A stretch of 64,000 bases of DNA, taken from positions 88,202-152,201 of the forward strand of contig JABLXA010000007.1 in assembly GCA_013178415.1 (NCBI GenBank), given 5' to 3'. The notes beneath the pieces were generated by a model that had not been told where the DNA came from, ran no database searches, and saw only the letters and a list, made by a program, of their open reading frames with translations. How positions within the stretch are numbered: the stretch's first letter is position 1; every line of letters starts with the position of its first letter. Source of the DNA: Bacillota bacterium. Lineage in GTDB: Bacteria; Bacillota; SHA-98; Ch115. A program made the translations under genes and the position numbers. Positions 1,880-18,146 of the stretch are shown here, one piece after another.

Positions 1880-1955
1880 GGGCCTGTAGCTCAGTGGATA
1901 GAGCAGCGGTTTCCTAAACCGTTGGTCGGAGGTTCGACTCCTCTCAGGCCCACCA
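1880..1955 (+). tRNA. tRNA-Arg (anticodon CCT), CCA encoded
   Basis: A full cloverleaf can be folded. The acceptor arm pairs GGGCCTG with CAGGCCC, followed by discriminator A and genomic CCA. The D-arm stem is GCTC/GAGC. The anticodon arm pairs GCGGT with ACCGT around loop TTCCTAA, giving anticodon CCT, which reads AGG codons. The T-arm pairs GGAGG with CCTCT (one G-T pair) around TTCGACT. The 3' 45 bases are repeated at 18102-18146, so this gene is the integration target of the element to its right and was kept whole by the attL sequence. Confidence 0.95.
1911..1955 (+). repeat. attL: 45-bp direct repeat (tRNA-Arg 3' end)
   Basis: Bases 1911-1955 are identical to 18102-18146. The repeat covers the anticodon loop, T-arm and acceptor 3' strand with CCA, which is typical for tyrosine-recombinase islands. 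Bases just outside differ at both ends (T versus A before, A versus G after). Confidence 0.95.
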
Positions 1956-1973
1956 AAAAAGATCAGGAATCAC

Positions 1974-2000
1974 AAGGGGTTTCGACCCCTTACTTTTTTT
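1974..2000 (+). terminator. Rho-independent terminator just inside attL
   Basis: AAGGGGT (1974-1980), a TTCG tetraloop and ACCCCTT (1985-1991) are followed by ACTTTTTTT. It probably ends the tRNA transcript, so the element brings its own terminator for the gene it enters. Confidence 0.85.
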
Positions 2001-2023
2001 GTAAGATACCTCGAAAAGGCCTT

Positions 2024-2043
2024 TTGGGGATAATTTGGGGATA
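2024..2043 (+). repeat. Left pair of TTGGGGATA repeats (putative integrase arm sites)
   Basis: TTGGGGATA occurs at 2024-2032 and 2035-2043, an 11-bp spacing. The same pair with the same spacing occurs near the other end (17965-17984). Direct repeats flanking an att core on both sides are the usual form of lambda-type integrase arm sites. That role is inferred. Confidence 0.6.
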
Positions 2044-2105
2044 GTTTTTCTAAAATGGTTCCCTGCAAAACCGAAAGAACCATCATGAAACTAGAAGGGC
2101 AGGTT

Positions 2106-3347
2106 TCAGGCCTGCCCTTGCTTCTGTAGTCCTGTGTGCTTGGTGAAGAGGCTGTCGAGCTTTGCGGCGGCTGCTTGGTCTACGCTTCTTAAGGCATGGG
2201 CGTAAATATCGGCGGTGGTGCTAATGTTAGAGTGCCCCAGGCGTCTACTTACATTCTTTAAGGGGACTCCTTCTGCTATTAGCAGGGTGCCCGAAGTGTG
2301 GCGAAGATTCTTGAATGCGATATGAGGCAACCCATGGCGTTTTAAGAACTTAGAAAACCAATTACTGATAGTATCAGGGAACATCGGCCGGCCGTCCCAC
2401 GTAGTAAATATGCGGTTAGACTCTTGCCACAAGTCCCCTACTTTTAAGCGCTCCTCTGCTTGCTGCGCTTTATACTGCTTGAGTAGAGCTATTACTGAGG
2501 GTGGAATCGCTATAGCCCTGCTAGAGGTTTCCGTTTTGGGCTCCTTTGTGAAGACCCCCCGCCCTGGTAGATACTGACTGGCCTGGTGAATATCTATGGT
2601 GCTATTTTCAAAATCTACATCCTGCCATTCCAGACCCATTAGCTCTCCCCTTCTGGCTCCTGTAGCAAGGGCAAGAACGACCATGACCTTGTATTTTAGG
2701 GGCTCCGTATCAAGGGCAGCAAGCATTCGCGCGGTCTGCTCTTCGTCATAACACGGTGCCTGCGTCTTCTTGACTTTTGGCGGCTTAACCTTACTGGCCG
2801 GGTTGGAGGGGATCACCTCCCAGTCTACGGCATCCTGAAGTATAGCCGAAATCAGGCGGTGATGATGAAGGATGGTCCTTTCTGATAACCCTCCAGGTTT
2901 GCCGTCTTCCCGAACGCCGTCTTCCTGGAGATTCTTGTAGAATTCCAACAGGTGCATGGGCTTTAGCTTCTCTATGGGAATATGCCCCATAGCGGGCAGT
3001 ATCCGAGAATCGAGCATTTCCTTGTATCGGAACAGCGTCTTTGGCGCGAGGTTAGTTTCCCCATAGTCCCGTATCCAACGTTCCATAAAATCTTTGAACG
3101 TTAGCTTTGACGGCGCGATGTAGAGGCCCTTCTCTACTTCCAATGAAAATTCAGCCAAGAGCTTGTCTGCTTCCTTCCTAGCCTTGCAGCGTGTTAGCTT
3201 GTCGCAGCCTCTGCAGGACTTTTCCAGGCAGGGAGTGTCTACGCTAACCGTTTTTGTCTTCTTCTCCTGCTTGCCGTCCGGCCCCATACCGCAGGAGACT
3301 ATCAGGCGCCATGAATTCTTACCCCTCTTTTCAAGACTCCCTAGCAT
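2106..3347 (-). CDS. int: Tyrosine recombinase / integrase
   Basis: 413 residues from the ATG at 3347, preferred over upstream starts because GGGGAG lies 5-6 nt before it; it overlaps the upstream gene by 17 bp. An N-terminal arm-binding region contains a four-cysteine patch (CLEKSCRGCDKLTRC, about residues 40-54). A SAM-like core-binding domain covers about residues 80-180, and the catalytic domain follows. Catalytic positions visible are R232 (TGARRGEL), K346 and R349 (FKNLRHT, with Lys where many relatives have the first His), H372 (RRLGHSNIST) and nucleophile Y382 (ADIYAHAL). It cuts and rejoins DNA at the tRNA-Arg att site for integration and, with the excisionase-like protein, excision. 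The frame is intact and the att repeats are perfect, so the enzyme is probably functional. Confidence 0.95.
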   Translation of the reverse strand: MLGSLEKRGKNSWRLIVSCGMGPDGKQEKKTKTVSVDTPCLEKSCRGCDKLTRCKARKEADKLLAEFSLEVEKGLYIAPSKLTFKDFMERWIRDYGETNLAPKTLFRYKEMLDSRILPAMGHIPIEKLKPMHLLEFYKNLQEDGVREDGKPGGLSERTILHHHRLISAILQDAVDWEVIPSNPASKVKPPKVKKTQAPCYDEEQTARMLAALDTEPLKYKVMVVLALATGARRGELMGLEWQDVDFENSTIDIHQASQYLPGRGVFTKEPKTETSSRAIAIPPSVIALLKQYKAQQAEERLKVGDLWQESNRIFTTWDGRPMFPDTISNWFSKFLKRHGLPHIAFKNLRHTSGTLLIAEGVPLKNVSRRLGHSNISTTADIYAHALRSVDQAAAAKLDSLFTKHTGLQKQGQA

Positions 3348-4398
3348 TAGATGTCTCCCCTTTCTTCTTTCCCGAAGGCCTGCGCGGATATTCCCTGCCT
3401 GTGATGCGTTGCCATGCGGCGCGGGCATCCCGCGAGAAAACCCGCCAATCTGAGTAAATCCACTCCGGGAATTTTCTGTTCCATATGGCCATTAACTCCC
3501 TCCAGGCGATGCCTGGATTTTCAGCAAGGAAGATGGACAATGATAAATGCTTTTCTGTCATGGGCCTGTCCCATCCGTCAAAGACATCCCTTCTAACTCT
3601 TACATACAGCTTGGCTACCTCCTGAGACGAAAGCCGCGGGTCTAACTCAAGAGTGACCCTCGCCGGTCCTATTGACGAGAAATGCAGGGTGCCTCTAGCT
3701 TTTGGGAGCGCCGGGACAACATCACAAAGAACAAATGCGACCGCCTGAGCTTCCTGCCATAAGGGAGCTATTCCCTGGAGACATGAAGCAAGATCTTTAA
3801 GGCGTCGCAATGGCCCGAAATGCGGGACAGGGACCTTATTTACCCATTTGTCTGTCCCCGGATATTCGAGGATGTCGACACTCCATTCAATCGGCCATGC
3901 TGCCTTTGCTTTCTCTGGCAGGGATAATATGCTCTGAAGGCAGCTAAAATCTCTTGAATTTTTGGGTTCTACATTCGCGGGAAGGGCGACCTTCACCCAG
4001 CGGGCCCCGCCCTGCTTTTGCGCTAATTGTTGTTTGACCCAGGTGTCAATCTCCTCGAGCTGGAGGAGTCTACCCTGTAATATCTCTTGACGAAAGGAAA
4101 TGACTTCTGGGAGCCGAGAGGCTTCAATGGCCCAAATCTGAGCCAGGGTGTCCAATCGCCTGTCAGGTGGTATCTCTTTTCGTTCCTCCTTCCTTTGGGC
4201 GTGCGCTGTGAGAGAGAAATGCGAATCGTAATGACGATATCTCTCTATAAGGTCCTCGAACTCAAACTCTCCGACGATAAATCCCTGAATAAGATCATCA
4301 TCCAATAAGGCCTGCCATATATCGTCTCTCACCTGGTGGCCAATGGCCGCGGCGAGCTTGCGGCGGATTTGTTCTTCTGTCAGTCTTTTTTGTGGCAT
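3331..4398 (-). CDS. Hypothetical protein co-transcribed with integrase
   Basis: About 355 residues from the ATG at 4398 (GGTGAT lies 5 nt upstream; a GTG at 4407 is possible). The product is soluble, charged, helix-rich at the N terminus (LTEEQIRRKLAAAIGHQVRDDIWQ region), and more beta-like in the middle. I recognise no family and see no transmembrane segment or signal peptide. It lies directly upstream of int with a 17-bp overlap and shares the leftward promoter at 4417-4445, so it is probably made together with the integrase. Possible roles are help with integration, control of lysogeny or a cargo function such as interference with competing phages. None of these is shown by the sequence. 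Confidence 0.7.
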   Translation of the reverse strand: MPQKRLTEEQIRRKLAAAIGHQVRDDIWQALLDDDLIQGFIVGEFEFEDLIERYRHYDSHFSLTAHAQRKEERKEIPPDRRLDTLAQIWAIEASRLPEVISFRQEILQGRLLQLEEIDTWVKQQLAQKQGGARWVKVALPANVEPKNSRDFSCLQSILSLPEKAKAAWPIEWSVDILEYPGTDKWVNKVPVPHFGPLRRLKDLASCLQGIAPLWQEAQAVAFVLCDVVPALPKARGTLHFSSIGPARVTLELDPRLSSQEVAKLYVRVRRDVFDGWDRPMTEKHLSLSIFLAENPGIAWRELMAIWNRKFPEWIYSDWRVFSRDARAAWQRITGREYPRRPSGKKKGETSNARES

Positions 4399-4416
4399 TA
4401 AAATCACCCAATTACA

Positions 4417-4445: not shown

Positions 4446-4460
4446 GAGGGGGTGCAAAAA

Positions 4461-4661
4461 ATGCTGCGGCTAAGAGAAGAACGGCTAAAGCGCGGATGGA
4501 GTCTAACGCAATTGACCATGCGTACGGCTATTGATACTGCTGCGCTATCGAAGATCGAACGGGGAAGGTGGCCCTGCGGTCCCGCCTGGCGACGGAGAAT
4601 CGCTGAGGCTTTCGGGATGGCCGAGGAGGAACTTTTCAAGCTGGTGGGTGAGGAGAAATGA
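4461..4661 (+). CDS. XRE-family HTH regulator
   Basis: A 66-residue protein consisting only of a Cro/cI-like helix-turn-helix domain (LTQLTMRTAIDTAALSKIERG is the HTH core). The ATG at 4461 is 8-9 nt after AGAGGGGG; a GTG at 4452 is too close to that site. It is divergent from the integrase operon and first in the rightward operon, the place of the lysogeny or excision switch in phages and satellites. It probably binds the intergenic region 4399-4460. At this size it lacks a separate dimerisation or cleavage domain. The ImmA/IrrE-type peptidase at the other end of the element may be its functional partner, by analogy with ICEBs1. Confidence 0.85.
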   Translation: MLRLREERLKRGWSLTQLTMRTAIDTAALSKIERGRWPCGPAWRRRIAEAFGMAEEELFKLVGEEK

Positions 4662-4876
4662 CGAGCACAATTAAACCGCCAGAAGCGGCGGAATTCCTGG
4701 GGATAAGCTACTGGAAACTGCTAGAGCTTGCGAAGGCAGGAAAGGTGCCCCATATCCGACTTCCAGGCCGGATCCTTTTCCGCCGAGAGAGTCTAGAGCG
4801 CTGGCTTGAAGAGCAAGAGCAGGCGAGCGTGCAGCGAGAATCGGCCCCTGTGGGAAAAATCAGGCAGCTAAGATAG
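4658..4876 (+). CDS. Excisionase-family winged-helix DNA-binding protein
   Basis: 72 residues. The start overlaps the XRE stop (ATGA). Residues 5-55 form the MerR-like HTH_17/excisionase domain (PPEAAEFLGISYWKLLELAKAGKVPHIRL then RILFRRESLERWLEE, quoted in pieces). Small proteins of this kind bend DNA at att sites and direct integrase to excise. Coupling to the XRE gene and position opposite int support an Xis role, though some members instead activate transcription. A short GC-rich stem-loop (4881-4895) separates it from the primase gene. Confidence 0.8.
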   Translation: MTSTIKPPEAAEFLGISYWKLLELAKAGKVPHIRLPGRILFRRESLERWLEEQEQASVQRESAPVGKIRQLR

Positions 4877-4913: not shown

Positions 4914-7508
4914 GTGAAGCACTTGTCTGAATCAATTGTAGAACAAAAGGCGATAGAAGACAAAGTAGCGCAGATCAAGCGAGCGCTGGATATTCTCTTC
5001 GAGCCGGGGGATGTTGTAGAGTTGCGCTGTCTCAATACCCACAAGGGCACGATTTCAGGATACTTCAATGACTTTAACAAGCTGGCGAAGGAGGCCGCGA
5101 AATTAAGCGGGAAAGTGCCTGCAGTATATGTGACTCTAAACCCGGTAAACCCGGACCTGCTGGCGAGGAGCGCAAACAAAGTAAAAGTATATGCACGCGA
5201 GACGACCGCAGACCGAGACATCATCGCCCGGCGCTGGCTGCCTTTGGACTTCGACCCGGTGAGGCCAGCTGGCATATCAAGCACTGATGCTGAACACGAA
5301 GCAGCCCTTACCCGTGCGCGAGAGGTGCGGGAATGGCTGCGCGGCCAAGGCTGGCCAGAGCCTATTCTCGCCGATAGTGGGAACGGCGCGCATCTCTTAT
5401 ATCGCATAGACCTCCCTAATGACGAGGCCGCGATGCGACTCGTCAAGAACTGCATTGACGCTCTGGCATTCAAGTTTACTGATGATGCAGTGACCGTAGA
5501 CCAAAAGCCATTCAATGCGGCGCGCATATGGAAACTCTATGGGACCCTCTGCTGCAAGGGCGACAGTCTGCCGGAGAGACCTCACCGGATGGCGGCTGTC
5601 CTGGAGACCCCGGAGAAGCTGGGGCTTGCATCAAAGGAACTGCTGGCCAAACTGGCAAAAATGCTGCCCGAGGAGCCGAAGCCGGAACAAAATCAGTATC
5701 GGACGGGGTATAAGCCCTTCGACCTGCAAAGCTGGATCCGCGAGCACGGACTGAGCGTGACGAAAGAAAAGCCTTGGAACGGCGGGACTGTCTACGAGTT
5801 GGGGGAGTGCCCGTTTAACCCTGATCATAGGCGGACGGCGCATATCATTCAATCGGCGAGCGGTGCCCTGGCATTTGGGTGCTTTCATAATAGCTGCGCG
5901 GGCAAGGACTGGCACGCACTAAGAGATCTACTGGAGCCGGGCTGGAAAGAGAAGAAATCGCGGGCGCGTAGTAGCAATAAAGCCCCAGATGCGGCGCAGG
6001 GGGATATTGCGGGGGACTTCATTCACGAAACTGACTTGGGGAATGCGCGGCGACTTGTGAGGCTACACGGCAAAGACCTGCGATACTGCCATCCATGGAA
6101 AAAATGGCTCACATGGGACGGGCGGCGGTGGAAAATTGATGATACCGCTGAGGTTGCGCGGCGGGCGCGGGATACAGTGAGAAGCATCTATATAGAAGCG
6201 CGTAATGCAGATACGAAAGAACGTGCGGCGGCGCTGGCGAAATTCGCCATACAGTGTGAAGCAAGCTACAAAATCAGCGCGATGATCGAGCTTGCCAAGA
6301 GCGAGCCGGGGATCCCAATTCTGCATGAGGAAATGGATCGTGACCCTTGGCTTCTGAATGTCAAGAATGGGACCATCGACCTCCGAACGGGTGAACTGAG
6401 ACCTCATAGACGCGAAGATTTCATAACCAAGCTGGCGCCTGTCGAATATGACCCGAAAGCAGAGTGCCCCCGATGGATGCAATTCTTGCATGAGATTATG
6501 GACGGAAATAAGAACCTGGTGGAGTTTTTACAACGTGCGGCGGGGTTTAGTCTGACGGGCGATGTTTCAGAGCATGTGTTATTCATCCTTTACGGGACAG
6601 GCCGGAACGGGAAGAGCACATTCCTGAATACCCTGCTGGCGGCCCTGGGCGACTATGCGAGAACGACTTTGCCTGACATATTGATAAAAAAGAATAATGA
6701 GCAGCATCCGACAGAGCTTGCCGACCTCTTTGGACTGCGAATGGCCATCGTGAATGAAAGCGAGGATGGCGCGCGGCTAGCGGAATCACGCGTCAAATAT
6801 CTAACCGGCGCTGACAGGATAAGCGCGCGACGAATGCGTGAGGATTCTTGGGAATTTAAGCCGACTCACAAGCTATGGATGGCTACAAACTATAAGCCAG
6901 CAATACGGGGTATGGACCCGGCCATATGGAACCGCCTTAAACTTATCCCATTCACTGTATCCTTTGCTGGACGCGAGGATAGGCAATTGCCGAAGAAATT
7001 GCAGGAGGAGTTGCCGGGTATCTTGCGCTGGTGTGTTGAGGGATGCCTAGCATGGCAGCGCGGCGGGCTAGGAGTACCCGAAGAAGTCAAGACGGCGACA
7101 GATAGTTATAAGGAAGAAAATGACGTGTTGGCGGCGTTTATCGGTGATTGCTGCATCGTGAATCCTCTGGCCAAAGTTAAATCGAGCGAGCTCTATCAAG
7201 CATACCTCGGATGGTGCGGGGAAAATGGAGAAAGACCTTTGAGCCAAAAAATCTTAGGGCAACGACTAGCGGAGCGTGGATTCGCAAGCCATAAGAGAAG
7301 TGTTTTGTTCTGGTTAGGTATTGGTTTGAAAAGTAACCGCGAAGAGGAAAAAAATGGTGGGAGGGAGGGGAGTGAGAACTGGTTTAACTCTAAGGGGCAG
7401 TCTCGCGTACGCAATTATACCGAAAATCACTCCCCACACTCCCCACACTCCCCACACTCTCCAAATGGAGTAAAGGATGATTCTGAACGGGAGGAAGGAA
7501 GCGTATGA
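4914..7508 (+). CDS. Primase-helicase replication protein (AEP/D5-type)
   Basis: 864 residues from GTG 4914 (GGAAGG just upstream). The N-terminal part (to about residue 230) resembles archaeo-eukaryotic-type primase/PrimPol domains: WLPLDFDPVRP gives the acidic metal site and ADSGNGAHLLYRIDLP the conserved histidine strand. A zinc-ribbon-like segment (CPFNPDH...CFHNSC) follows at about 290-330. The C-terminal half has a D5_N/P4-like region and an SF3 helicase with Walker A GTGRNGKS near residue 560. It would prime and unwind the element's own origin, giving autonomous replication after excision as in SaPIs and P4. The C-terminal tail contains a tandem HSP tripeptide run encoded by repeated CACTCCCCA (about 7430-7460). 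It overlaps the next gene by ATGA. Confidence 0.9.
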   Translation: MKHLSESIVEQKAIEDKVAQIKRALDILFEPGDVVELRCLNTHKGTISGYFNDFNKLAKEAAKLSGKVPAVYVTLNPVNPDLLARSANKVKVYARETTADRDIIARRWLPLDFDPVRPAGISSTDAEHEAALTRAREVREWLRGQGWPEPILADSGNGAHLLYRIDLPNDEAAMRLVKNCIDALAFKFTDDAVTVDQKPFNAARIWKLYGTLCCKGDSLPERPHRMAAVLETPEKLGLASKELLAKLAKMLPEEPKPEQNQYRTGYKPFDLQSWIREHGLSVTKEKPWNGGTVYELGECPFNPDHRRTAHIIQSASGALAFGCFHNSCAGKDWHALRDLLEPGWKEKKSRARSSNKAPDAAQGDIAGDFIHETDLGNARRLVRLHGKDLRYCHPWKKWLTWDGRRWKIDDTAEVARRARDTVRSIYIEARNADTKERAAALAKFAIQCEASYKISAMIELAKSEPGIPILHEEMDRDPWLLNVKNGTIDLRTGELRPHRREDFITKLAPVEYDPKAECPRWMQFLHEIMDGNKNLVEFLQRAAGFSLTGDVSEHVLFILYGTGRNGKSTFLNTLLAALGDYARTTLPDILIKKNNEQHPTELADLFGLRMAIVNESEDGARLAESRVKYLTGADRISARRMREDSWEFKPTHKLWMATNYKPAIRGMDPAIWNRLKLIPFTVSFAGREDRQLPKKLQEELPGILRWCVEGCLAWQRGGLGVPEEVKTATDSYKEENDVLAAFIGDCCIVNPLAKVKSSELYQAYLGWCGENGERPLSQKILGQRLAERGFASHKRSVLFWLGIGLKSNREEEKNGGREGSENWFNSKGQSRVRNYTENHSPHSPHSPHSPNGVKDDSEREEGSV

Positions 7509-8208: not shown

Positions 8209-8440
8209 GCGGGCCCGTGGGGCAATTAGACAGACGCATCATGTAGAGGAGCCGTCAAGCGGCAAGCATCCCGCCTGGTGCAATGAGTGCGCCTGGCGGA
8301 CGCACAATGTTGGTGGCTGTGCGGTGTTCAATGACTGTCGGGACCCCTGGCTGGAGAATGGAGTCTGTGAAGCATGGGCGGACGAGGAGATGAGGCAGGA
8401 AATTGAGCAAGCTATCGCCGACTATGAAGCAAGCCATTGA
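8168..8440 (+). CDS. Small cysteine-rich (zinc-finger-like) protein
   Basis: 90 residues from an ATG preceded by GGAGG. The centre has WCNECAWRTHNVGGCAVFNDC and a later C in NGVCEAW, five cysteines with one histidine, which suggests a bound zinc ion. Such small Cys-rich proteins are common between replication and packaging modules of Gram-positive phages, where they are usually uncharacterised. It overlaps both neighbours. Confidence 0.6.
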   Translation: MAITQKLMDAPAYKRARGAIRQTHHVEEPSSGKHPAWCNECAWRTHNVGGCAVFNDCRDPWLENGVCEAWADEEMRQEIEQAIADYEASH

Positions 8441-8792
8441 ACGAATCTTTACAAGATATCGGCTGAACCAGGCGAGGGCGGCGCTGCTAATGTCCCGGCT
8501 GGAGCGCACAGGCGGGAGCATCATCCTCAGAATCCCCAAAGGTGAGAGTAAGTATGAGGACGGACTTGCAGACCTTGCGGACATAAGCCGGGAGCTGGAC
8601 GCATACGAGGCGGTATTCATGGCGCTGAACCGGATCGAGAGGATATTCGTCCGATTGAGGTATGACGAAGGGTTTTCCATAGCTGGAGTGGCGCGGGAGT
8701 TGGGGATAAGCGAACGGAGCGTATACAGGCTGAGGGATCAGGTATTTGGCAAAGCGGCGGCAGTATTGGGATGGCAGGAAAATGTCAGTTGA
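8403..8792 (+). CDS. Sigma-70 region-4-like late regulator (ArpU/RinA-type role)
   Basis: 129 residues from a TTG after AGGAAA, or 122 from the ATG at 8424. The C-terminal third, VRLRYDEGFSIAGVARELGI then SERSVYRLRDQV, is a helix-turn-helix of the sigma region 4 type. The N terminus is helical. Proteins of this shape just upstream of the HNH-terminase genes in Firmicute phages activate transcription of the packaging and head genes. A similar role for the operon starting at 8882 is inferred from position. Confidence 0.7.
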   Translation: MSKLSPTMKQAIERIFTRYRLNQARAALLMSRLERTGGSIILRIPKGESKYEDGLADLADISRELDAYEAVFMALNRIERIFVRLRYDEGFSIAGVARELGISERSVYRLRDQVFGKAAAVLGWQENVS

Positions 8793-8842
8793 TTTAGCGA
8801 AAACCCTATGATACGGTTAAGATGGAAAATTAAGCTATGGGG

Positions 8843-8860
8843 GCCCGTCGAAAGGCGGGC
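8843..8860 (+). terminator. Stem-loop before the HNH gene
   Basis: GCCCG (8843-8847) and CGGGC (8856-8860) flank an 8-nt loop and are followed by TCTTTC. The stem is short and the U-run broken, so it may be a weak terminator or attenuator between early and late genes. Confidence 0.4.
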
Positions 8861-8881
8861 TCTTTCATTTGGGGTGATACC

Positions 8882-9232
8882 ATGCCGATGAAGCCATTAG
8901 GCCCTTGCCGGTATCCTGGGTGCCCTAATTTGCAGATACCTGGCGGGCATGGCTACTGTGAAGAGCATGTCAGGGAATACCGGCGCGAGGATGCAAGACG
9001 CAGGGGAAGCGCAAGGCAACGAGGCTACACCAGGCGCTATGAGAAAGCACGAATGTGGGCCCTCAAACGGCAGCCCCTATGCGTGCTGTGCAAGGCTGAA
9101 GGCCGGCTGACTGCGGCGACTGTCACTCACCATATCAAGCCATTGGCAGAAGGTGGGAGCAATAGCGCAGATAACCTTCTTCCCTTATGTGAGGCCTGCC
9201 ATGAACGCATGCACTCTAAGGAGGGGGGATAA
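8882..9232 (+). CDS. HNH endonuclease (packaging-associated)
   Basis: 116 residues from ATG 8882, chosen because GGGGTGA lies upstream and the product begins at the conserved first cysteine motif (CRYPGCPNL). The C-terminal half is the HNH nuclease: C-x2-C (LCVLCKAEG), HH of VTHHIKPL, N of SADNLLPLC and a second C-x2-CH pair (CEACHERMH). In HK97-type cos phages an HNH protein encoded immediately before terS works with terminase to cut cos. The same order here implies cos-type packaging of the satellite genome. Confidence 0.9.
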   Translation: MPMKPLGPCRYPGCPNLQIPGGHGYCEEHVREYRREDARRRGSARQRGYTRRYEKARMWALKRQPLCVLCKAEGRLTAATVTHHIKPLAEGGSNSADNLLPLCEACHERMHSKEGG

Positions 9233-9348
9233 GCTGTCGTCCCTTCTAGATGGCCATTTTTTCTAGACCCATCCCCTGGGGACCGGGTGCGGGGCCTTTT
9301 CTGAACGAGTGCAGTTAAAATCTGGTTTTTGCGGAGGGAGGATATGCC
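9233..9348 (+). other. Non-coding gap between HNH and small terminase; candidate cos region
   Basis: This 116-bp gap interrupts an otherwise overlapping operon. It holds short GC-rich palindromic words (for example CCCCTGGGG near 9282) and ends in a strong GGAGGGAGG ribosome site for terS. The cos site of cos-type phages is usually near this point. That is position-based inference only. Confidence 0.35.
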
Positions 9349-11341: not shown

Positions 11342-11658
11342 GACATTTATTCAATAACACATTCACCCAGAAGCGATTCACGACCTACTACAACGAGTTT
11401 AACGAGCCTATAAGCGAATGGGTGACCATAGGGACCATCCAGGGGCGGCTGAGGATAGCAAATATGCAGGATCGTTTTGTGGCGGCATCCCTGAACGTAA
11501 CGCTGGAGTATATCTTCTACTGCGGCCCGGAGGTGGACATACGCCAGGGCGACAGGATCGAGCTGGGAGACACCAAGGTAGAAATCCTGGCGGTAAAAGA
11601 CCCGAGTTTTGCACGACACCATCTTGAATGCGAGGGCAAGACCGATACGCGGCCATAA
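11338..11658 (+). CDS. Head-tail joining / head-closure protein
   Basis: 106 residues from GTG 11338 overlapping the terL stop. The sequence MRHLFNNTFTQKRF...YNEFNEPISEW, followed by beta strands ending DRIELGDTKVEILAVKDP, matches the Phage_H_T_join fold (SPP1 gp16-like), a small beta-barrel ring that plugs the portal complex after packaging. In ordinary phages it lies after the capsid gene. Here it sits between terL and portal, an unusual order. Confidence 0.8.
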   Translation: MRHLFNNTFTQKRFTTYYNEFNEPISEWVTIGTIQGRLRIANMQDRFVAASLNVTLEYIFYCGPEVDIRQGDRIELGDTKVEILAVKDPSFARHHLECEGKTDTRP

Positions 11659-11667
11659 GGGGGCGGT

Positions 11668-13578
11668 ATGATGAGCTTTTGGAGAAGGCTATTCGGCAAA
11701 GAGGAAAAACGAGCGTTCGGACTAAGGGACCCCGACGGCTGGGTGCCTCTTATGGGCTGGGGCACAAATGCCGGCATAACGGTAACCCCTGAGACAGCGC
11801 TGACACATCCGGCTGTCCTGGGCGCTGTGCGGCTAGTGGCGGAGCTTACGGCGTCCCTGCCCCTGGTAGTCTATGAGCGAACAGACAGCGGACGCAGGCG
11901 GGCTGAGGATCATCCAATATACGCATTGATGCACGAGGTCCCTAATCCGTTAATGACGCCTTTCACATTCAAGGAAACGGTTGCTACCAGCTTACTTCTA
12001 TATGGCAATGCTTATGTGCTGGTGCAGTGGGGCGATACCGGTATACCAGTGGCGTTGTGGCCATTACACCCATCAAAGGTGCAGGTGGAAATGCCGGCAG
12101 GGGGCCCTATCATCTACCAGGTGACTGGCGCTAACGGGCAGCGGACCCCATACAGCCCTGACGACATTCTGCACGTGCCCTTGCTAGCGCTGGACGGGAT
12201 CATAGGCCGGTCTCCCGTGCAGTTGGCGCGGGAAGCAATAGGCGCGGCGCTGGCTGCCGAAGAACATGCTTCGGGCTACTTCGCGAACGCGGCAAGGCCT
12301 TCTGGGGTGCTAAAGACTGCCGGCATCCTCACCCCCGAGGCTGCCAAGAGGCTGCGGGAGAGCTGGCAGGCTGCTTATGGACACGGCAAGGCCGGGACCG
12401 CGGTGTTGGAGGACGGGATCGAGTTTCAGCCAATAAGCGGGAACGCGCAAGAATCGCAGCTAATCGAATCCCGGCAATTCGCTATGAGGACCATAGCGGC
12501 GGCTTTAAGGATCCCTCCGCACATGCTGGACCCGACGGCGAGGGGCACTTACGCGAATGTCGAGACGCAAAGCCTGGAATTCCTGACGTTTAGCTTGCAG
12601 CCATTCCTGACGCGGATCGAAGAGGCCTTCACATTGAAGTTGTTCCTGCCAGGAGAACGGAACCGTTACTTTGTGGAATTCCTGACGGACGGGCTGTTAA
12701 GGACTGATACGCGAACACGGTACATGGCTTACCAGATAGCCATTCAGAGTGGATTCATGACCGCAAATGAGGCAAGGCAGAAGGAGAACCTACCACCATT
12801 GCCGGAACCCCCGCAGAATAACCCAGTGCGGGCTATAGGGGTCCTTGAGACGCGAGCCGATAAGAAGCAGATAATCCTGGCGAGACATAAGCCGCAGATC
12901 GAGGCGATAGCGCGTCGGGTGATAGCCAGGGAGCGGGAAGACATACTGGCCATAGTGGGAAAAGCACTTGGACGGCGGGATATAGGGCAGGCTGAGACCG
13001 CAATAGCTGAGTATTACAAGCAGTCTGGCTGGATAGGGAATGAGTTTACTCCTGCATTCCGGGAGCTTGCCGCAGAGAGCAATAAAGAGGCCGCCAGTGA
13101 AGTCAATGCTTCGGCATGGAAAGATGATGAGTTAGATAATTACATCAAAGGCCATGCTGAGGCATATGCGGCTAAGCACGCCGGAATAAGCCTGGCGACA
13201 ATTCAGCCGGCGCTTCGGCTAGGGGCTGAGGCTGCCATATTGGAGGCCCTGGAGAGCATCCTATCTGACATGGAAGCTACGCGGCCCGGCAAGATCGCGG
13301 CGCTGGAGGTTGCCAATATCGGCAATGATGCAGCGCTGGAGACCTACCGAAAGGCTGGTATTACAAGGATAACCTGGCAGGCCAATGCCAGCGCGTGCGA
13401 ATTCTGCAAGAGGCTGAGCGGAAAGACGGTAGGCATAGGTGAACCTTTCGTGAATGTGGGCGAATCCATCCCTGGCCCGGCGGGGGACATGAGCAGGAAG
13501 CTGACGGCAAGGCAGCCAAGGATAAGACCGCCGATTCATCTTGGCTGTGAATGCACTTTAATTCCAGTTAGGGACTAG
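11668..13578 (+). CDS. Portal protein fused to a MuF-like minor head domain
   Basis: 636 residues; ribosome site GGGGGCGG before the ATG. Residues 1-400 are an HK97-family portal (ALTHPAVLGAVRLVAELTAS, LLLYGNAYVLV, RIPPHMLDP, YANVETQSLEFL). Residues about 440-636 are a Mu protein F-type domain ending in WQANASACEFCKRL and IHLGCECTLIPV, with the paired cysteines and histidine of that fold. Portal and MuF are usually separate adjacent genes, so this is a fusion that delivers the minor head protein at the portal vertex. The portal dodecamer is the DNA entry pore and terminase docking site. Confidence 0.92.
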   Translation: MMSFWRRLFGKEEKRAFGLRDPDGWVPLMGWGTNAGITVTPETALTHPAVLGAVRLVAELTASLPLVVYERTDSGRRRAEDHPIYALMHEVPNPLMTPFTFKETVATSLLLYGNAYVLVQWGDTGIPVALWPLHPSKVQVEMPAGGPIIYQVTGANGQRTPYSPDDILHVPLLALDGIIGRSPVQLAREAIGAALAAEEHASGYFANAARPSGVLKTAGILTPEAAKRLRESWQAAYGHGKAGTAVLEDGIEFQPISGNAQESQLIESRQFAMRTIAAALRIPPHMLDPTARGTYANVETQSLEFLTFSLQPFLTRIEEAFTLKLFLPGERNRYFVEFLTDGLLRTDTRTRYMAYQIAIQSGFMTANEARQKENLPPLPEPPQNNPVRAIGVLETRADKKQIILARHKPQIEAIARRVIAREREDILAIVGKALGRRDIGQAETAIAEYYKQSGWIGNEFTPAFRELAAESNKEAASEVNASAWKDDELDNYIKGHAEAYAAKHAGISLATIQPALRLGAEAAILEALESILSDMEATRPGKIAALEVANIGNDAALETYRKAGITRITWQANASACEFCKRLSGKTVGIGEPFVNVGESIPGPAGDMSRKLTARQPRIRPPIHLGCECTLIPVRD

Positions 13579-13588
13579 GAGGGAGAGC

Positions 13589-15259
13589 ATGAAGAGACGG
13601 CTCTTGGAGACCAGGGGCAGCGAACCGGAGGAGCTGGAGCTGCGGAACTTTGAGATGCGGCTGGCCGGCGATGATAATCAACCCGTGCTGACCGGCTATG
13701 CTGCGGTATTCAACCAAGATAGCACGGGATTGTTCTTCTCTGAGCGTATCAGGCCAGGCGCATTCAAGCGGAGCCTCGAAGCGAAGCAGGATGTCCTGGC
13801 GCTGGTAGACCACGACCGAGCAAAAGTGATAGGCCGGGTGAGCAATGGGACCCTATCCCTGCGCGAGGATGATAAAGGCCTTCTGGTGGAAATACGGCCA
13901 AACATGGAGACCACCTTTGGCCGTGACGTAGTGGCCAATGTCAAACGGCGGGACATTACGAACATGTCGTTCGGCTTTATCGCCAAAAAGGACGCATGGA
14001 CCCCAGACAAGACCGGCAAGAATGTCGCCCGTGAGATCATCGAGGCCGATCTGCGGGAAGTATCCATAGTTAGTATGCCGGCATACGCCGGAACATCTAT
14101 ACAGAAACGTGAGGAGGAATTGGACATGACGAAGAAAGAGCGGGAACTCCGCCAGAAGCTGGCGGGACTGAAGGAGCGGCATAGTGCCATACTGGGAAAG
14201 GACAATCTGACCGATGAGGAGCGCGCGGAGCAGCTATCCCTGGCCAAGGAGATCCGGAGCATAGAGGCGCAGATCGCGGAGATAGCGAAGGAGGCCCCTG
14301 CTGAGGCCCCTGCGGCTGCCCCTGTTGCTGTGGTCCCTGCGCCTGCTTCTGATGAGCAGCGGGCATTTAACGTGTATCTTCGTACGGGTGAGACGCGGGC
14401 CCTGAACGTCGGGACGGATGCTGGCGGCGGCGTGTTGGCCCCCCAGGGATTCATAGCTGAGGTGCTCCGTGCCAGACAGGAAACGGCTGTTATGCGGCGC
14501 GTGGCCCGTGTCATTGGCCCGGTAAATTCGGCGCAGGTGGAGATACCGCGGAGCCTTACCGGTGTTACCGCGACCTGGCTTGCCGAGAATGCGGCTATCG
14601 TGCCTGGAGATCCTAGCTTCGACAAGCTGACCTTCACGCTTCACAAGATGGGGGCCCTGACCCAAGTTAGCAATGAGCTCCTGGCCGACAGCGGAATAAA
14701 TGTGGAGGCCCTGCTTTCGCAGTTATTCGGCGAGGCCTTAGCGAAACTGGAGGATGCAGCGTTTTTCAATGGCAATGTCGCAGGACAGCCAAAGGGAATC
14801 CTGCAGGATGCCAACATTCAGACCGTAGCGGCTGCAGCTGGTGCAGCGGTGAGTGTGGACGACATACTGAACCTCTATGATGCAGTGCCCCCGCAATATC
14901 AGGGGACCGCTGTATGGGTGATGAATCCTGCTACTATGAGTCTACTTCGCAAGCTGAAGGATACTGCTGGTAGACTGATGCTGACCTCCGACTTGACCGG
15001 TCCGGCGCCAATAACCCTGCTTGGCAGGCCGGTATACCTGAGCTCCAACATGCCGGCGGTGGCGCTCAATGCGAAGAGCATCCTCTTCGGGGACCTTCGC
15101 GACGCCTATATAATCGTGGACCATGCGAATCTAGGCGTGCAGCGGAGCGCAGACCGGTACTTCGAGGCTGACCAGGTGGCATTCCGGGTGATAGCCCGTG
15201 TAGACGGCCAGGTGGCGCTGCCGGAAGCTGTGCGCATCCTCAAACAACCTGCGGCGTAA
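13589..15259 (+). CDS. Prohead protease fused to HK97-fold major capsid protein
   Basis: 556 residues. Residues 15-170 form a HK97-family (U35) prohead protease with likely catalytic H75 (LVDHDRAKV), S127 (TNMSFGF) and an acidic partner near E157 (REVSIVSMPAY). Residues 180-240 are a coiled-coil scaffold (delta) segment followed by an Ala/Pro-rich linker. Residues 265-556 are the HK97 capsid fold (GGGVLAPQGF, ATWLAENAAI, NGNVAGQPKGIL, RVDGQVALPEAVR). The protease presumably frees itself and trims the delta domain during maturation. An internal ribosome site and ATG at residue 180 would also give separate capsid subunits. Confidence 0.93.
   Translation: MKRRLLETRGSEPEELELRNFEMRLAGDDNQPVLTGYAAVFNQDSTGLFFSERIRPGAFKRSLEAKQDVLALVDHDRAKVIGRVSNGTLSLREDDKGLLVEIRPNMETTFGRDVVANVKRRDITNMSFGFIAKKDAWTPDKTGKNVAREIIEADLREVSIVSMPAYAGTSIQKREEELDMTKKERELRQKLAGLKERHSAILGKDNLTDEERAEQLSLAKEIRSIEAQIAEIAKEAPAEAPAAAPVAVVPAPASDEQRAFNVYLRTGETRALNVGTDAGGGVLAPQGFIAEVLRARQETAVMRRVARVIGPVNSAQVEIPRSLTGVTATWLAENAAIVPGDPSFDKLTFTLHKMGALTQVSNELLADSGINVEALLSQLFGEALAKLEDAAFFNGNVAGQPKGILQDANIQTVAAAAGAAVSVDDILNLYDAVPPQYQGTAVWVMNPATMSLLRKLKDTAGRLMLTSDLTGPAPITLLGRPVYLSSNMPAVALNAKSILFGDLRDAYIIVDHANLGVQRSADRYFEADQVAFRVIARVDGQVALPEAVRILKQPAA
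14111..14128 (+). promoter_or_regulatory. Internal ribosome-binding site and start within the protease-capsid gene
   Basis: GAGGAGG at 14111-14117 lies 8 nt before an in-frame ATG (14126), exactly at the boundary between the protease domain and the delta/capsid part. Translation from here would give a 377-residue capsid protein without protease, allowing many more capsid than protease copies. Confidence 0.65.
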
Positions 15260-15299: not shown

Positions 15300-15326
15300 A
15301 GTTTCACATAAAGGGGGCGCTGGAAT

Positions 15327-15863
15327 ATGTATGAGCTGGTTTCCAACAGCGAGGCATTGACCTACCTGCAGCTACCGGCGACGGTAGATCTAACACAGTT
15401 GATCACCAACATATCTGCCCGGATCGAAACTTATACAGGCCGGTGGTTTATAACCCGGCCCGTGGTGGATGTCCTTGACTCCGGCGGCGGGGGCATGCTG
15501 TTCCTGAGCCGGTATCCCGTGCAGGGGACCCCTACGGTGACGGACTTAACCGCGAATACGCAGGTGACAGACTTCCTGACATACAGCGGCAGCGGGATGC
15601 TGTATCGCGAGGGGGGCTGGGAGGCCGGCAGGCAGCGGTATCGGATAGAGTATCAGGCCGGTATATGCGCTGATGTGGCCACAGTGCCCGCGGATGTGAA
15701 GCAGGCGGCGCTGGAGTGGATCAAGGCCCGCTATGACCGGCGGGACCCGGCAATAAGGCGAGAGCAGTTAGGCGATTACTCCTATAGTGCTGATGAGCCG
15801 GACGGTATCCCCCCTGGCGTCAAGGCGGCGCTGTCCTTATGGTGTGTGCCGAGGGGGCATTGA
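15327..15863 (+). CDS. Head-tail connector (HK97 gp6-like)
   Basis: 178 residues. The N-terminal helices (SNSEALTYLQLPATVDLTQL then ISARIETYTGRWF) and the C-terminal VPADVKQAALEWIKARYDRR match the gp6/YqbG-type adaptor that binds beneath the portal. It would form the interface on which a tail docks. It is the last virion gene of the element: what follows are regulators, not tail genes. The satellite would therefore build a closed, tail-ready head and need tails from another phage. Confidence 0.8.
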   Translation: MYELVSNSEALTYLQLPATVDLTQLITNISARIETYTGRWFITRPVVDVLDSGGGGMLFLSRYPVQGTPTVTDLTANTQVTDFLTYSGSGMLYREGGWEAGRQRYRIEYQAGICADVATVPADVKQAALEWIKARYDRRDPAIRREQLGDYSYSADEPDGIPPGVKAALSLWCVPRGH

Positions 15864-15864
15864 T

Positions 15865-16746
15865 ATGCTCTCTGAACAACAAAAGGCGCTTATCTTGAAC
15901 CATCTGGGGTTAGCAAGGTTTATGGCCCGAAAATTCCGGAATAACGAATATCTGAGTTACGATGACCTGCTTGGAATAGCTAATCTTGCCTTGGTGCGTG
16001 CAGCGGCGGCATTTCCGGAATCCGATGCCTGCAGAAGTGGCGTCCCTTTCAAGACTTTTGCCGCAAAGTATATGAGGATTGCGCTGCTGACAGCCCTTCG
16101 TGAGTCATTGCCGGTGCATGTGCCACAGGAGGCGAACCTACGGGCAGGCATTTTCAACCAGGCGGAGGCGGCGCGGATTGCGCGGGGGGACGACCGCATG
16201 AGTGATGCGGAGCTTGCCGCGACCCTGGGCTGGACGGAGGATCAGGCGCGAAGAATACGGCGCCTGGTGCCTGCGCTGCACGCTGGTATGTCTTTGGATG
16301 TGCCGGTTGAAGGCCCTGATGGTGACGAGGAACCTTTTGGTAATTTCTTTGAAGATCCTGAAGAAGACGTGGAGGCGGAGGTTTTGGACAGGCTAGCCCG
16401 CGAAGAAGAGCTTGAACGCCTGCGAGGGATCATTGCCGGGCTGCCGCATTCGATGAAATTGGCCATATCACTGCGTTTCGGTCTGCATACTCCCAAATGT
16501 GAGCGAATCACCATAGCGGAGGTGCTGAGCGTCTTTATCGGCATGGGCTGTGTTACATGCACGGCGTTAAAGAGGGTGAGGGAACATGCGGGCGTCGCGG
16601 GTGCAGGAGAGAGCAGAGGATATTCTTTGGACGATTGTTATGCTCGAAAGGGCGCTGCGGCAAAGGCGAAAGAGCGCCGGGGCGCGGACCTCTGGCGGCG
16701 TATTGCAAGCGGGGAAGAGGAAATCCCGATTTTATGCGAGCAGTGA
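15865..16746 (+). CDS. Sigma-70-family factor encoded by the satellite
   Basis: About 293 residues from the ATG at 15865, just after the connector stop (GAGGGGG upstream). Region 2 is visible in YLSYDDLLGIANLALVRAAA and FKTFAAKYMRIALLTAL, a region 3-like helical segment in MSDAELAATLGWTEDQARRI, an acidic linker, then region 4 from LPHSMKLAISLRFGL to ALKRVREHAGV. The C-terminal 60 residues are not typical. It could direct RNA polymerase to late element promoters or to helper genes. Its place after the structural genes is unusual. The last 161 nt overlap the next gene in another frame. Confidence 0.75.
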   Translation: MLSEQQKALILNHLGLARFMARKFRNNEYLSYDDLLGIANLALVRAAAAFPESDACRSGVPFKTFAAKYMRIALLTALRESLPVHVPQEANLRAGIFNQAEAARIARGDDRMSDAELAATLGWTEDQARRIRRLVPALHAGMSLDVPVEGPDGDEEPFGNFFEDPEEDVEAEVLDRLAREEELERLRGIIAGLPHSMKLAISLRFGLHTPKCERITIAEVLSVFIGMGCVTCTALKRVREHAGVAGAGESRGYSLDDCYARKGAAAKAKERRGADLWRRIASGEEEIPILCEQ

Positions 16747-17005
16747 GCAAGAACGGTATGTTATAGCGAATGAGCGGGACTTTAGGAAGGCTAAGGCGTT
16801 GATGGATATTCTCCGGCCAATTGAGCTAACCTGGCTGGAGGCAGTAGTGTTGCTCCATTATTATTTTCGCAACCTGACCTTAGAGGATACCGCGACTGCG
16901 GCAGGGGCGCATATTTTTGAGATCATGAAGGCCCGCGACTCATTGCTTACCAAGGTAGCTAGAGCGGCAGGCTATATAGGCGAAGATCAGGCGCTGAATC
17001 AATAG
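16586..17005 (+). CDS. Small regulator, sigma region-4-like C terminus
   Basis: 139 residues, ATG after GAGGGAAC; the first 161 nt overlap the sigma-factor gene. The C-terminal half (IELTWLEAVVLLHYYFRNLT then LEDTATAAGAHIFEIMKARD) resembles a region 4 helix-turn-helix. The basic N-terminal third is shared with overlap sequence and less convincing, so the true start could be further in. It ends just before a strong terminator, making it the last gene of the long rightward operon. Function inferred as transcription control. Confidence 0.6.
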   Translation: MRASRVQERAEDILWTIVMLERALRQRRKSAGARTSGGVLQAGKRKSRFYASSEQERYVIANERDFRKAKALMDILRPIELTWLEAVVLLHYYFRNLTLEDTATAAGAHIFEIMKARDSLLTKVARAAGYIGEDQALNQ

Positions 17006-17010
17006 CGCAT

Positions 17011-17047: not shown

Positions 17048-17048
17048 G

Positions 17049-17118: not shown

Positions 17119-17130
17119 GGAGGCGCAACC

Positions 17131-17427
17131 ATGAAGAAGCGGGTAATGCTTTATCTCACCGATGATGACTCCCGCAGGTTATCCTCTCTGGCGAAAAAAG
17201 CGGGCATGTCTATGAATGCCCTGGTGGTATCCCTTCTATGGCAGGCCGATATGCCAAGACGAAAGGCAGGAGAAGCCCTGGAATATGTCTGCAAGCGGTG
17301 CGGACGAAAGATCTTGGCTGATGTCGCCGATGTGATGCCTCCCGATGAATGCCCTTACCCTGCGTGTGGCGGCGTGCTGGCTCCCACAGGACGGGGACTT
17401 ACCCTCATAGTAGGGCGTATCGAATAG
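17131..17427 (+). CDS. Ribbon-helix-helix regulator with zinc-ribbon tail
   Basis: 98 residues, GGAGG before the ATG. Residues 1-45 (MKKRVMLYLTDDDSRRLSSL then AKKAGMSMNALVVSLL) have the beta-strand and two helices of a CopG/Arc RHH DNA-binding domain. Residues 50-80 carry two Cys pairs (YVCKRCGRKI and DECPYPACGG), a small zinc ribbon. The three ATACTAGTAT sites directly upstream are probably its operators. It heads a two-gene operon with the ImmA/IrrE peptidase gene and is separate from the late operon, so it is probably expressed in the integrated state. Confidence 0.75.
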   Translation: MKKRVMLYLTDDDSRRLSSLAKKAGMSMNALVVSLLWQADMPRRKAGEALEYVCKRCGRKILADVADVMPPDECPYPACGGVLAPTGRGLTLIVGRIE

Positions 17428-17443
17428 AAAGGGGAATGGGAGA

Positions 17444-17833
17444 ATGGAATACAGGCGCAGGAATGCCAGGGAACTATATCGGTGCTTTCTTGACTTAGCG
17501 AAGGCCCGAGGTATCAGAGTGGTATTATATTCTCTGCCGAGCCCCATAGATGGGTTTTATCTGGGTGACAGAAATAGATGGCCAAATGGGTTAATAGTGC
17601 TGGAAAAGAAATTGAAGATTCGAGAGCGGGTATGGGTGCTTGCCCATGAGCTCGGACATTATTTCATGGACAAAGTGCTAAATATCGAAATTGGCAATAT
17701 TTTTCTAAAGAGCGTGACTGACGAGGATAAGAAGCGGCGGGTTCAGATAGAGGCTGAGGCTGATGATTTTGCGCGGTGGCTTATTACTGTTTATGGGGGC
17801 GATGAGGCCTACTTCCCTCCAAAAAGGTCCTAA
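17444..17833 (+). CDS. ImmA/IrrE-family metallopeptidase
   Basis: 129 residues. The zinc motif HELGH is in VLAHELGHYF, and the third ligand glutamate lies in QIEAEADDFARWL, both typical of ImmA/IrrE (DUF955). In ICEBs1 and phi105-type elements ImmA cleaves a cI-like repressor to start induction. The only XRE protein here is encoded at the other end of the element, and the adjacent gene is an RHH protein, so the substrate could be either. No HTH domain is fused to it. Confidence 0.85.
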   Translation: MEYRRRNARELYRCFLDLAKARGIRVVLYSLPSPIDGFYLGDRNRWPNGLIVLEKKLKIRERVWVLAHELGHYFMDKVLNIEIGNIFLKSVTDEDKKRRVQIEAEADDFARWLITVYGGDEAYFPPKRS

Positions 17834-17860
17834 GGCGGGTGGATTTCGAGGCGATACGAA

Positions 17861-17890
17861 GAGGCCCCGGCAAACGCCGGGGCCTTCTTT
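17861..17890 (+). terminator. Rho-independent terminator at the right end of the satellite
   Basis: GGCCCCGGC (17863-17871) pairs with GCCGGGGCC (17876-17884) around AAAC, extended by AAG/CTT type ends and followed by TTCTTTT. It closes the RHH-ImmA operon. Confidence 0.9.
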
Positions 17891-17964
17891 TGCGTTTGGG
17901 ATCCGGATTCTCCGCTACGCTGTTTTCATTTTCATCTACGGTTATGGCGACCGCAGGTATGGCA

Positions 17965-17984
17965 TTGGGGATAAATTGGGGATA
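17965..17984 (+). repeat. Right pair of TTGGGGATA repeats (putative integrase arm sites)
   Basis: TTGGGGATA at 17965-17973 and 17976-17984, same sequence, orientation and 11-bp spacing as the pair at 2024-2043. The surrounding non-coding 17890-18101 holds no gene. Confidence 0.6.
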
Positions 17985-18101
17985 GTCTATTCAAAACTAC
18001 CCCCAAAAACGACCTATGGAAACCTATGGCAGAGAGAAAAAATCTGGCAATACCAAGCATTTCAGCATGATAACCAATGGAACAAAACGGTAGGTTTCGC
18101 A

Positions 18102-18146
18102 TTCCTAAACCGTTGGTCGGAGGTTCGACTCCTCTCAGGCCCACCA
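18102..18146 (+). repeat. attR: 45-bp direct repeat of the tRNA-Arg 3' end
   Basis: Identical to 1911-1955. The sequence before it lacks a tRNA 5' half, so only the left copy is a working tRNA. Confidence 0.95.

What the first reader, a model, noticed from the sequence alone, without database searches (positions are those of the whole stretch)
1911..18146. Tailless, capsid-encoding phage satellite in a Bacillota tRNA-Arg gene
Seen: perfect 45-bp att repeats and a complete early-to-head gene set (int, Xis-like, primase-helicase, HNH, terS, terL, portal, protease-capsid, head closure, connector) and no tail or lysis gene. The virion genes stop exactly at the tail interface. Known: capsid-forming PICIs make their own heads and borrow tails. 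Inference: this is such a satellite in an anaerobic Bacillota lineage, with its own sigma factors and an ImmA-type switch, a combination I do not know from described members.
Basis: partly seen in the sequence, partly recalled or inferred. Interest (0 to 1): 0.93.

Follow-up and report, generated by a model that had tools for sequence, protein, structure and literature searches.

The report
Tailless phage satellite with own heads
A 16-kb mobile element sitting in a bacterial arginine-tRNA gene carries phage head and DNA-packaging genes but no recognisable tail gene; diverged relatives are built the same way, so it is likely a lasting family of phage parasites that would spread by fitting their own heads onto tails borrowed from another phage.

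Summary
A 16,191-bp element lies between perfect 45-bp repeats at tRNA-Arg(CCT). It has integrase, excisionase-like, primase-helicase, HNH, TerS, TerL, head-closure, portal, fused protease-capsid and connector genes, and no detected tail or lysis gene. It is not a freshly deleted prophage. A second, diverged element (L113; integrase 52% identical, capsid of another clade) sits in the same tRNA-Arg(CCT), also tailless. A third (L098) closes into a tailless 13.3-kb circle. The portals of 16 family loci form one branch (SH-aLRT 100) apart from portals of tailed phages, and the head genes are under strong purifying selection. I also found a bipartite motif, TTTTTCT-N14-18-GACC, between HNH and terS in 11 of 13 family loci; before terL it occurs in 1 of 130 non-family loci that hold this region. 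I take it as a candidate packaging (cos) site. Neck genes vary across the family, and one relative (Desulfotomaculum copahuensis) carries a single tail gene, a tape measure. The host genome also holds a prophage with tail genes, a possible helper, but its neck proteins do not match. Best reading: a divergent capsid-forming satellite (cf-PICI type), a new variant of a known kind. Tail borrowing is inferred.

The parts
1880..1955 (+). tRNA-Arg(CCT), integration target, left intact
   Evidence: ARAGORN
1911..1955 (+). att repeat, left copy (3' end of the tRNA)
   Evidence: aligned with L113 att
18102..18146 (+). att repeat, right copy, 100% identical
2106..3428 (-). tyrosine integrase (likely start near 3347)
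   Evidence: PF00589 8e-28, phrog_1 2.7e-80; 52% identical to L113 integrase
3331..4407 (-). uncharacterised 358-aa protein; 12 relatives found, the three with names from Bacillota MAGs; related pieces at both ends of L098
   Evidence: no family; 13 proteins incl. itself; L098 pieces; no PDB fold match at E 0.001; no match in phage records
4452..4661 (+). Cro/CI-type HTH, repressor-like
   Evidence: HTH_31 2.6e-10, phrog_3
4658..4876 (+). AlpA/Xis-type excisionase-regulator
   Evidence: PF12728 47 bits over cut-off 27; phrog_66
4914..7508 (+). P4/D5-type primase-helicase
   Evidence: D5_N 4.8e-41; TIGR01613 326 bits
7505..7819 (+). small protein with TubC_N-like domain, unknown role
   Evidence: PF18563 5.7e-15
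8403..8792 (+). late-activator-like HTH with sigma region 4 similarity
   Evidence: PF08281 1e-7; phrog_36, phrog_248
8837..9232 (+). HNH endonuclease of the packaging type
   Evidence: PF01844, phrog_144 2.5e-33
9257..9284 (+). candidate cos element TTTTTTCT-N16-GACC between HNH and terS
9349..9813 (+). small terminase
   Evidence: PF05119 1.7e-21
9803..11341 (+). large terminase
   Evidence: PF20441/PF03354, phrog_9 5.6e-190
11338..11658 (+). head closure protein, placed before the portal gene
   Evidence: PF05521 3.5e-6, TIGR01563 over cut-off
11668..13578 (+). portal with C-terminal Mu-F-like extension
   Evidence: PF04860 8e-109, PF04233 7.5e-4 below its cut-off; alignment
13589..15259 (+). 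prohead protease (S78) fused to HK97-type major capsid
   Evidence: PF04586 1e-45, PF05065 3e-73
15327..15863 (+). head-tail connector, gp6-like; last virion gene
   Evidence: phrog_442 1.7e-25; 71% identical in L018
15865..16746 (+). sigma-70-type factor
   Evidence: phrog_351 8e-22; sequence 15840-15900
16586..17005 (+). small protein, weak sigma-factor similarity; homologue in L100
   Evidence: phrog_3512 0.007; L100 2.8e-9
17131..17427 (+). ribbon-helix-helix/zinc-ribbon-like small protein
   Evidence: weak matches only
17444..17833 (+). ImmA-type M78 peptidase
   Evidence: PF06114 30 bits over cut-off 22

Best explanation
The element is likely a capsid-forming phage satellite: it encodes integration, replication, DNA-packaging and head genes but no recognisable tail gene, and it would spread by joining its own DNA-filled heads to tails made by a helper phage. 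Shown by sequence: the att repeats, the gene set, a family of diverged elements built the same way, and selection keeping the head genes intact. Inferred steps: (1) a helper signal or DNA damage relieves the HTH/ImmA switch; (2) Int and Xis excise the circle, and the primase-helicase replicates it; (3) the late-activator-like HTH and the sigma factor turn on the head operon; (4) TerS, TerL and HNH cut and package at the satellite's own cos-like site between HNH and terS, into small HK97-type heads; (5) the head-closure and connector proteins present a neck to which the helper's tail attaches; (6) the helper's lysis genes release the particles.
For: Boundaries and content. Same tRNA and layout in the diverged L113 (94% identical 47-bp repeats 15,018 bp apart; int, xis, Prim-Pol, HNH, terS, terL, portal, capsid; longest ORF between capsid and right repeat 328 aa). 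Tailless circle L098. Portal clade, 16 of 16 family rows, SH-aLRT 100. Purifying selection, pS 0.71-0.81 against pN 0.17-0.35 in 12 of 12 gene comparisons. Control: of 78 non-family loci, 62 have 8 kb or more after the capsid match, and 58 of these 62 have a tail-sized same-strand ORF there (at least two of the 58, L052 and L080, are probably flanking genes). Cos-like motif in 11 of 13 family loci, and within 900 bp before terL in 1 of 130 non-family loci that hold the region. Possible helper in the same genome, with tail tube, 2124-aa tape measure, Dit and endolysin.
Against: No direct evidence of excision, particles or a helper. The only tail-bearing prophage found in the genome shares no detectable neck protein with the element, and the genome was searched with three phage families only (PF05065, PF10145, PF04865). 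L018 has one tail gene, and its left end is cut by the contig end, so further tail genes beyond it are not excluded; two tape-measure families found no other tape measure in its genome, so no helper there either. L098 has no integrase-sized unassigned ORF, and its homologue of the 358-aa gene is split. Three relatives show no neck gene, so the 'own neck' step is not a family rule. TerL does not follow the family: its tree needs 3 changes. Family members are rare: 2 of 398 genomes of the phylum sample. A looser motif pattern also matched once more in the host genome and once elsewhere in the D. copahuensis genome, about as often as its reversed control.
Confidence: 0.85

Rival explanations
1. 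A decaying prophage that lost its tail and lysis modules and is stranded in the tRNA gene.
For: The head genes are clearly phage-derived; a tailed relative keeps the order portal, protease, capsid, connector, closure and then further virion-like genes (L297). TerL is shared or exchanged with tailed phages (3 changes).
Against: The head genes are open and under purifying selection. Three separate elements with defined ends (window, L113, circular L098) are all tailless. The portals form one clade outside the tailed phages. Even L113, with a capsid of another clade, stays tailless.
Confidence: 0.08
2. An autonomous element that needs no helper tail: heads are released and enter cells by another route, or use a tail or tailocin encoded in the chromosome.
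For: Three relatives (L019, L100, L113) show no neck gene, so some members may make heads that never receive a normal tail. The best match to solved structures is 6tb9, capsid protein Rcc01687, which is the R. capsulatus gene transfer agent (recalled).
Against: The window keeps closure and connector genes, useful for joining a tail. It has integrase, excisionase-like and primase genes, unlike a gene transfer agent (recalled). A tailocin cluster was not systematically searched; Baseplate_J gave 0 matches in the genome.
Confidence: 0.04
3. A satellite that keeps its heads as decoys or for defence, with little transfer of its own.
For: Satellites often carry anti-phage functions (recalled). The 358-aa protein and the small genes after the sigma factor have no known role.
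Against: A complete packaging set with a conserved cos-like element is not needed for a decoy. No defence-system library was run here.
Confidence: 0.03

Closest known systems
Capsid-forming PICIs (cf-PICIs), Alqurainy et al. 2023 (paper not held; described in passages of PMC10690885, PMC10803314, PMC11389934)
   Same: Own capsid, protease, portal, connectors, TerS, TerL and HNH; integrase, AlpA/Xis-type regulator and primase; no tail; about 14 kb average against 16.2 kb here.
   Different: Protease fused to capsid, portal with Mu-F-like extension, head-closure gene placed before the portal, a sigma factor after the connector (whether published cf-PICIs share any of these was not checked), and relatives in a host group outside the main carriers listed in PMC10803314. 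Whether its capsid falls inside one of the three published cf-PICI capsid clades could not be tested.
cf-PISP satellite-plasmids of Vibrio (PMC13230959, passages)
   Same: Small circular, tailless elements with a head and packaging set; like relative L098, without an integrase.
   Different: They carry parA/repA; found in Vibrio only; the window element is integrated.
MulchRoom/MiniFlayer satellites of Streptomyces phages (PMC10690885, passages)
   Same: Own terminase, portal, capsid and adaptor; helper-type tail in MulchRoom.
   Different: No primase, direct terminal repeats, virulent helpers, no significant homology to cf-PICIs according to that paper.
PLE satellites with their own tape measure, and cf-PICIs with putative tape-measure genes (PMC12987554, passages); E. 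coli satellites with capsid and putative tape-measure genes (PMC10448857, passages)
   Same: Relative L018 carries one tail gene, a tape measure, next to its head genes.
   Different: PLEs are predicted to use the helper's capsid proteins (abstract of PMC10945586, listing); the E. coli satellites lack terminase and protease; the window element itself has no tape measure.
HK97-type cos packaging (PMC9410871, passages)
   Same: TerS, TerL and a packaging HNH; the candidate cos site lies between HNH and terS (the same place in HK97 is recalled).
   Different: The motif was seen before terL in only 1 of 130 non-family loci holding the region; HK97 itself was not scanned.

Membership tests
cf-PICI | Encodes its own capsid, head protease, portal and head-tail connectors | tested here: met
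cf-PICI | Encodes its own packaging: HNH, TerS, TerL | tested here: met
   cos-like element
cf-PICI | No tail and no lysis genes | tested here: met
   for the window; one relative (L018) has a tape measure
cf-PICI | Integrase, AlpA-type regulator (PF05930 or PF12728) and primase within att sites | tested here: met
   the two AlpA profiles are those of the PICMI search model in PMC10803314 (passage)
cf-PICI | Size near 14 kb | tested here: met
   16,191 bp; L113 15,018; L098 about 13,273
cf-PICI | Capsid inside a published cf-PICI capsid clade | not testable with these tools
   The published set is not held; the family rows in my capsid tree form one clade except L113
cf-PICI | Induced by a helper and mobilised in chimeric particles with helper tails | not testable with these tools
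   experiment needed
Ordinary (deleted) prophage | Close relatives with a tail module in the same place | tested here: not met
Gene transfer agent | Fixed chromosomal cluster without integrase or att sites (recalled) | tested here: not met

The most novel reading that the evidence does not exclude
This is a member of an old, separate lineage of head-making satellites in Bacillota, in which the border between self-made and borrowed virion parts slides: some members stop at the capsid, others add a neck, one adds its own tape measure, while a family-specific bipartite cos element keeps packaging private and a satellite-coded sigma factor drives late genes.
Probability: 0.4. Interest if true: 0.75.

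Novelty: new variant of a known kind. Interest (0 to 1): 0.6.

Why it matters
[quoted passage not shown] A diverged lineage in other Bacillota, found also as a circle in metagenome data, suggests the strategy is older or arose more often than those cases show. The natural variation in neck genes, from none detected to closure plus connector to a tape measure, could show which parts a satellite must supply to accept another phage's tail. The candidate cos element gives a simple DNA signature for finding further members.

Tried and rejected
Recent-deletion reading: rejected on the L113, L098, portal-tree and selection evidence. Helper with matching connector: profiles of six connectors and six head-closure proteins gave nothing better than E 0.19 in 60 kb around the same-genome prophage. 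The window's connector and sigma factor had no match in 50,697 phage records; the head-closure protein matched two records of one Streptomyces phage weakly. DNA-level search of 4.2 kb of the head module against phage records: no match. A scan of IMG/VR with the 358-aa protein confirmed no relative, and it had no family, no phage-record match and no PDB match at E 0.001 (its model has pTM 0.52). Host naming failed: no 16S match in the genome, and a host-protein search gave mixed taxa. The phylum is inferred: the genome behind L019 (Firmicutes bacterium UBA3572) matches the 'same phylum' row G380 by contig number and coordinates. TerL alone does not define the family: its tree of 102 rows needs 3 changes.

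Limits of the counts. The tail rule is an ORF-size rule: it counts L080 as tailed although its integrase follows small genes after the capsid, so that row is wrong; 26 of 83 portal rows had no label. Of the 16 family portal rows only six (window, L018, L019, L098, L100, L113) were called tailless; L018 with its tape measure is among them, and the others end too early or were not called. The motif was read from an alignment of 10 loci, so only L100, L114 and L116 were new in the 13-locus count (two of three hit), and near-copies exist (L101/L114/L117; L019/L118); distinct lineages with the motif are eight. Of 163 non-family loci scanned (5 forward, 6 reverse matches anywhere), 151 have a forward terL and 130 hold 700 bp before it, 59 of them with an HNH match within 1.5 kb. 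The trees are quick ones without bootstrap, and their output warns of long branches. The dS values are saturated in 9 of 12 comparisons.
Full report
WHAT IS THERE. The window holds a 16,191-bp element between perfect 45-bp repeats (1911-1955 and 18102-18146), the left one being the 3' part of an intact tRNA-Arg(CCT) gene. From left to right it has an integrase, an uncharacterised 358-aa protein, a repressor-like HTH, an AlpA/Xis-type regulator, a P4/D5-type primase-helicase, small proteins, a late-activator-like HTH, packaging HNH, TerS, TerL, head closure, portal, a fused protease-capsid, a connector, a sigma-70-type factor, small proteins and an ImmA-type peptidase. No tail or lysis family scored better than E 0.03 among the 20 ORFs given to PHROGs. 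G+C is higher over the head genes (up to 0.59) than in the host flanks (about 0.50). In the excised circle the ImmA gene would lie next to the integrase end, near the HTH, as in ICE-type ImmR/ImmA switches (recalled).

THE FAMILY. A protein search with the fused protease-capsid gave 93 proteins at E 1e-30 or better, the query included; 26 were aligned. With that alignment, L018 (Desulfotomaculum copahuensis, 59%) and L019 (Firmicutes bacterium UBA3572, 58%) were the only near full-length matches above 51% among 80 loci kept of 158 confirmed, and six of 14 IMG/VR loci belong to the family (L098-L102, L106). The portal alignment added L112-L118.

WHY IT IS NOT A DELETED PROPHAGE. First, L113 is a second integrated element: 47-bp repeats, 94% identical, 15,018 bp apart, the left one in tRNA-Arg(CCT), with integrase 52% identical to the window's and int, xis, Prim-Pol, HNH, terS, terL, portal and capsid in the same order. 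The largest ORF between capsid and right repeat is a 328-aa recombinase-like HTH protein. Its capsid belongs to another clade, so a capsid exchange left the tailless plan untouched. Second, L098 (13,293 bp) has a 20-bp identity between its ends and pieces of the 358-aa gene at both ends in one orientation; it carries head genes plus connector and closure, no tail gene found and no unassigned ORF over 155 aa. Third, L019 and L100 also run from capsid to a regulator and then to other small genes, within the contig held, without a tail. Fourth, in a portal tree of 83 rows all 16 family rows form one side of a branch with SH-aLRT 100. Fifth, synonymous sites are near saturation (pS 0.71-0.81) while pN is 0.17-0.35 in 12 of 12 comparisons. 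As a control, of the 78 non-family loci, 62 have at least 8 kb after the capsid match, and 58 of the 62 have a same-strand ORF of 480 aa or more there; at least two of these (L052, L080) are probably flanking genes, so 56 of 62 is the safer figure.

A CANDIDATE PACKAGING SITE. Between HNH and terS, diverged members share TTTTTCT, 14-18 bases, GACC. It is present 491-569 bp before terL in 11 of 13 family loci, absent in L018 (HNH and terS only 18 bp apart) and L116. Of 163 non-family loci, 5 have it forward and 6 reverse anywhere; of the 130 that hold 700 bp or more before a forward terL, one (L047) has it within 900 bp. In the window the form with 16 spacer bases occurs once, with 0.02 expected from shuffles. 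A stricter form matched six stretches in all of IMG/VR: three are family members (L098, L100 and L289, the contig of L101); the other three showed no match to the family's or the prophage's genes in the stretch held (2.0, 13.7 and 11.4 kb). Against this, a looser form also matched once more in the host genome and once elsewhere in the D. copahuensis genome, about as often as the reversed control, so the motif alone is not enough to find members in a whole genome. HK97 cos packaging uses TerS, TerL and HNH (PMC9410871, passages). Whether the site is cut is untested. The 60 kb around the same-genome prophage lack it.

THE NECK VARIES. Window and L018, and as far as they reach L112 and L116, have head closure before the portal; window and L018 also have a connector after the capsid. 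L098, L101 and L115 have connector and closure after the capsid. L019, L100 and L113 show neither with family profiles (nothing below E 0.2) or PHROGs (10 small ORFs of the three loci); a very diverged neck protein could be missed. L018 carries a 622-aa tape-measure protein between capsid and connector (PF20155 3.6e-27; phrog_9959 3.4e-84); the four best relatives in IMG/VR, 645-836 aa, sit among ORFs laid out like tail modules, so it looks complete. It is the only TMP_3 match in that genome, and PF10145 found none there. Putative tape-measure genes in cf-PICIs, and a PLE that builds chimeric tails with its own tape measure, are reported in PMC12987554 (passages).

POSSIBLE HELPER. The same genome has one PF05065 capsid (the element's own) and one PF10145 tape-measure match, in a prophage on contig 12 with portal, tail tube, 2124-aa tape measure, Dit, tail-tip-like and endolysin genes and a presumed capsid of a family of unknown function (phrog_3116). 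Its terminase was not scanned against a library. It could donate tails, but its neck proteins do not resemble the element's. Baseplate_J gave nothing. In the phylum sample 6 of 398 genomes had a portal at E 1e-110 or better: two are family (own and, by coordinates, the UBA3572 genome), three look tailed by gene layout (L297-L299), one contig (L300) starts at the portal and is too short to tell. In the class sample only the own genome of 17 matched.

COMPARISON WITH WHAT IS KNOWN. The gene set meets the sequence features of capsid-forming PICIs as described in papers I could read in passages (PMC10690885, PMC10803314, PMC11389934); the original paper was not held. PMC11389934 says cf-PICI capsids form three clades; I could not place this one among them. 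I saw no report of cf-PICI-type elements in this host group in the listings of searches, which cover open-licence PMC papers only. I therefore file it as a new variant of a known kind. Function (induction, packaging, tail borrowing) is inferred.

Noticed in passing
L046 and L052 (Lysinibacillus), 9953-11431: Island-like loci with an integrase and a fused protease-capsid of 493 aa but no terminase or portal match nearby (L052 also has an 861-aa ORF): perhaps satellites that supply only the head shell.
   Followed up: partly
L080 (Fructobacillus fructosus), 6436-13847: terS, terL, portal, protease, capsid-sized ORF, three small ORFs and then an integrase: looks like an unrelated tailless capsid-forming island.
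   Followed up: partly
L018, 9588-11453 (Desulfotomaculum copahuensis): A lone, apparently complete tape-measure gene between capsid and connector of a family member.
   Followed up: yes
window 3331-4407 (minus): Uncharacterised 358-aa protein family (13 proteins, the named ones from Bacillota MAGs) with no family match and no confident PDB fold match (model pTM 0.52).
   Followed up: yes
L098, ends of the contig: Circular member without an integrase-sized ORF and with a split homologue of the 358-aa gene; may be an episomal form like cf-PISP or carry an assembly error at the join.
   Followed up: partly
L113, 11145-13010: Protease-capsid of a different clade inside an otherwise typical family member: a head-shell swap between satellites and phages.
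   Followed up: partly
G000 contig 12, about 21-66 kb (L200-L202): Prophage with tail tube, Dit, endolysin and a 2124-aa tape measure in the window's own genome; its presumed capsid belongs to phrog_3116, of unknown function.
   Followed up: partly
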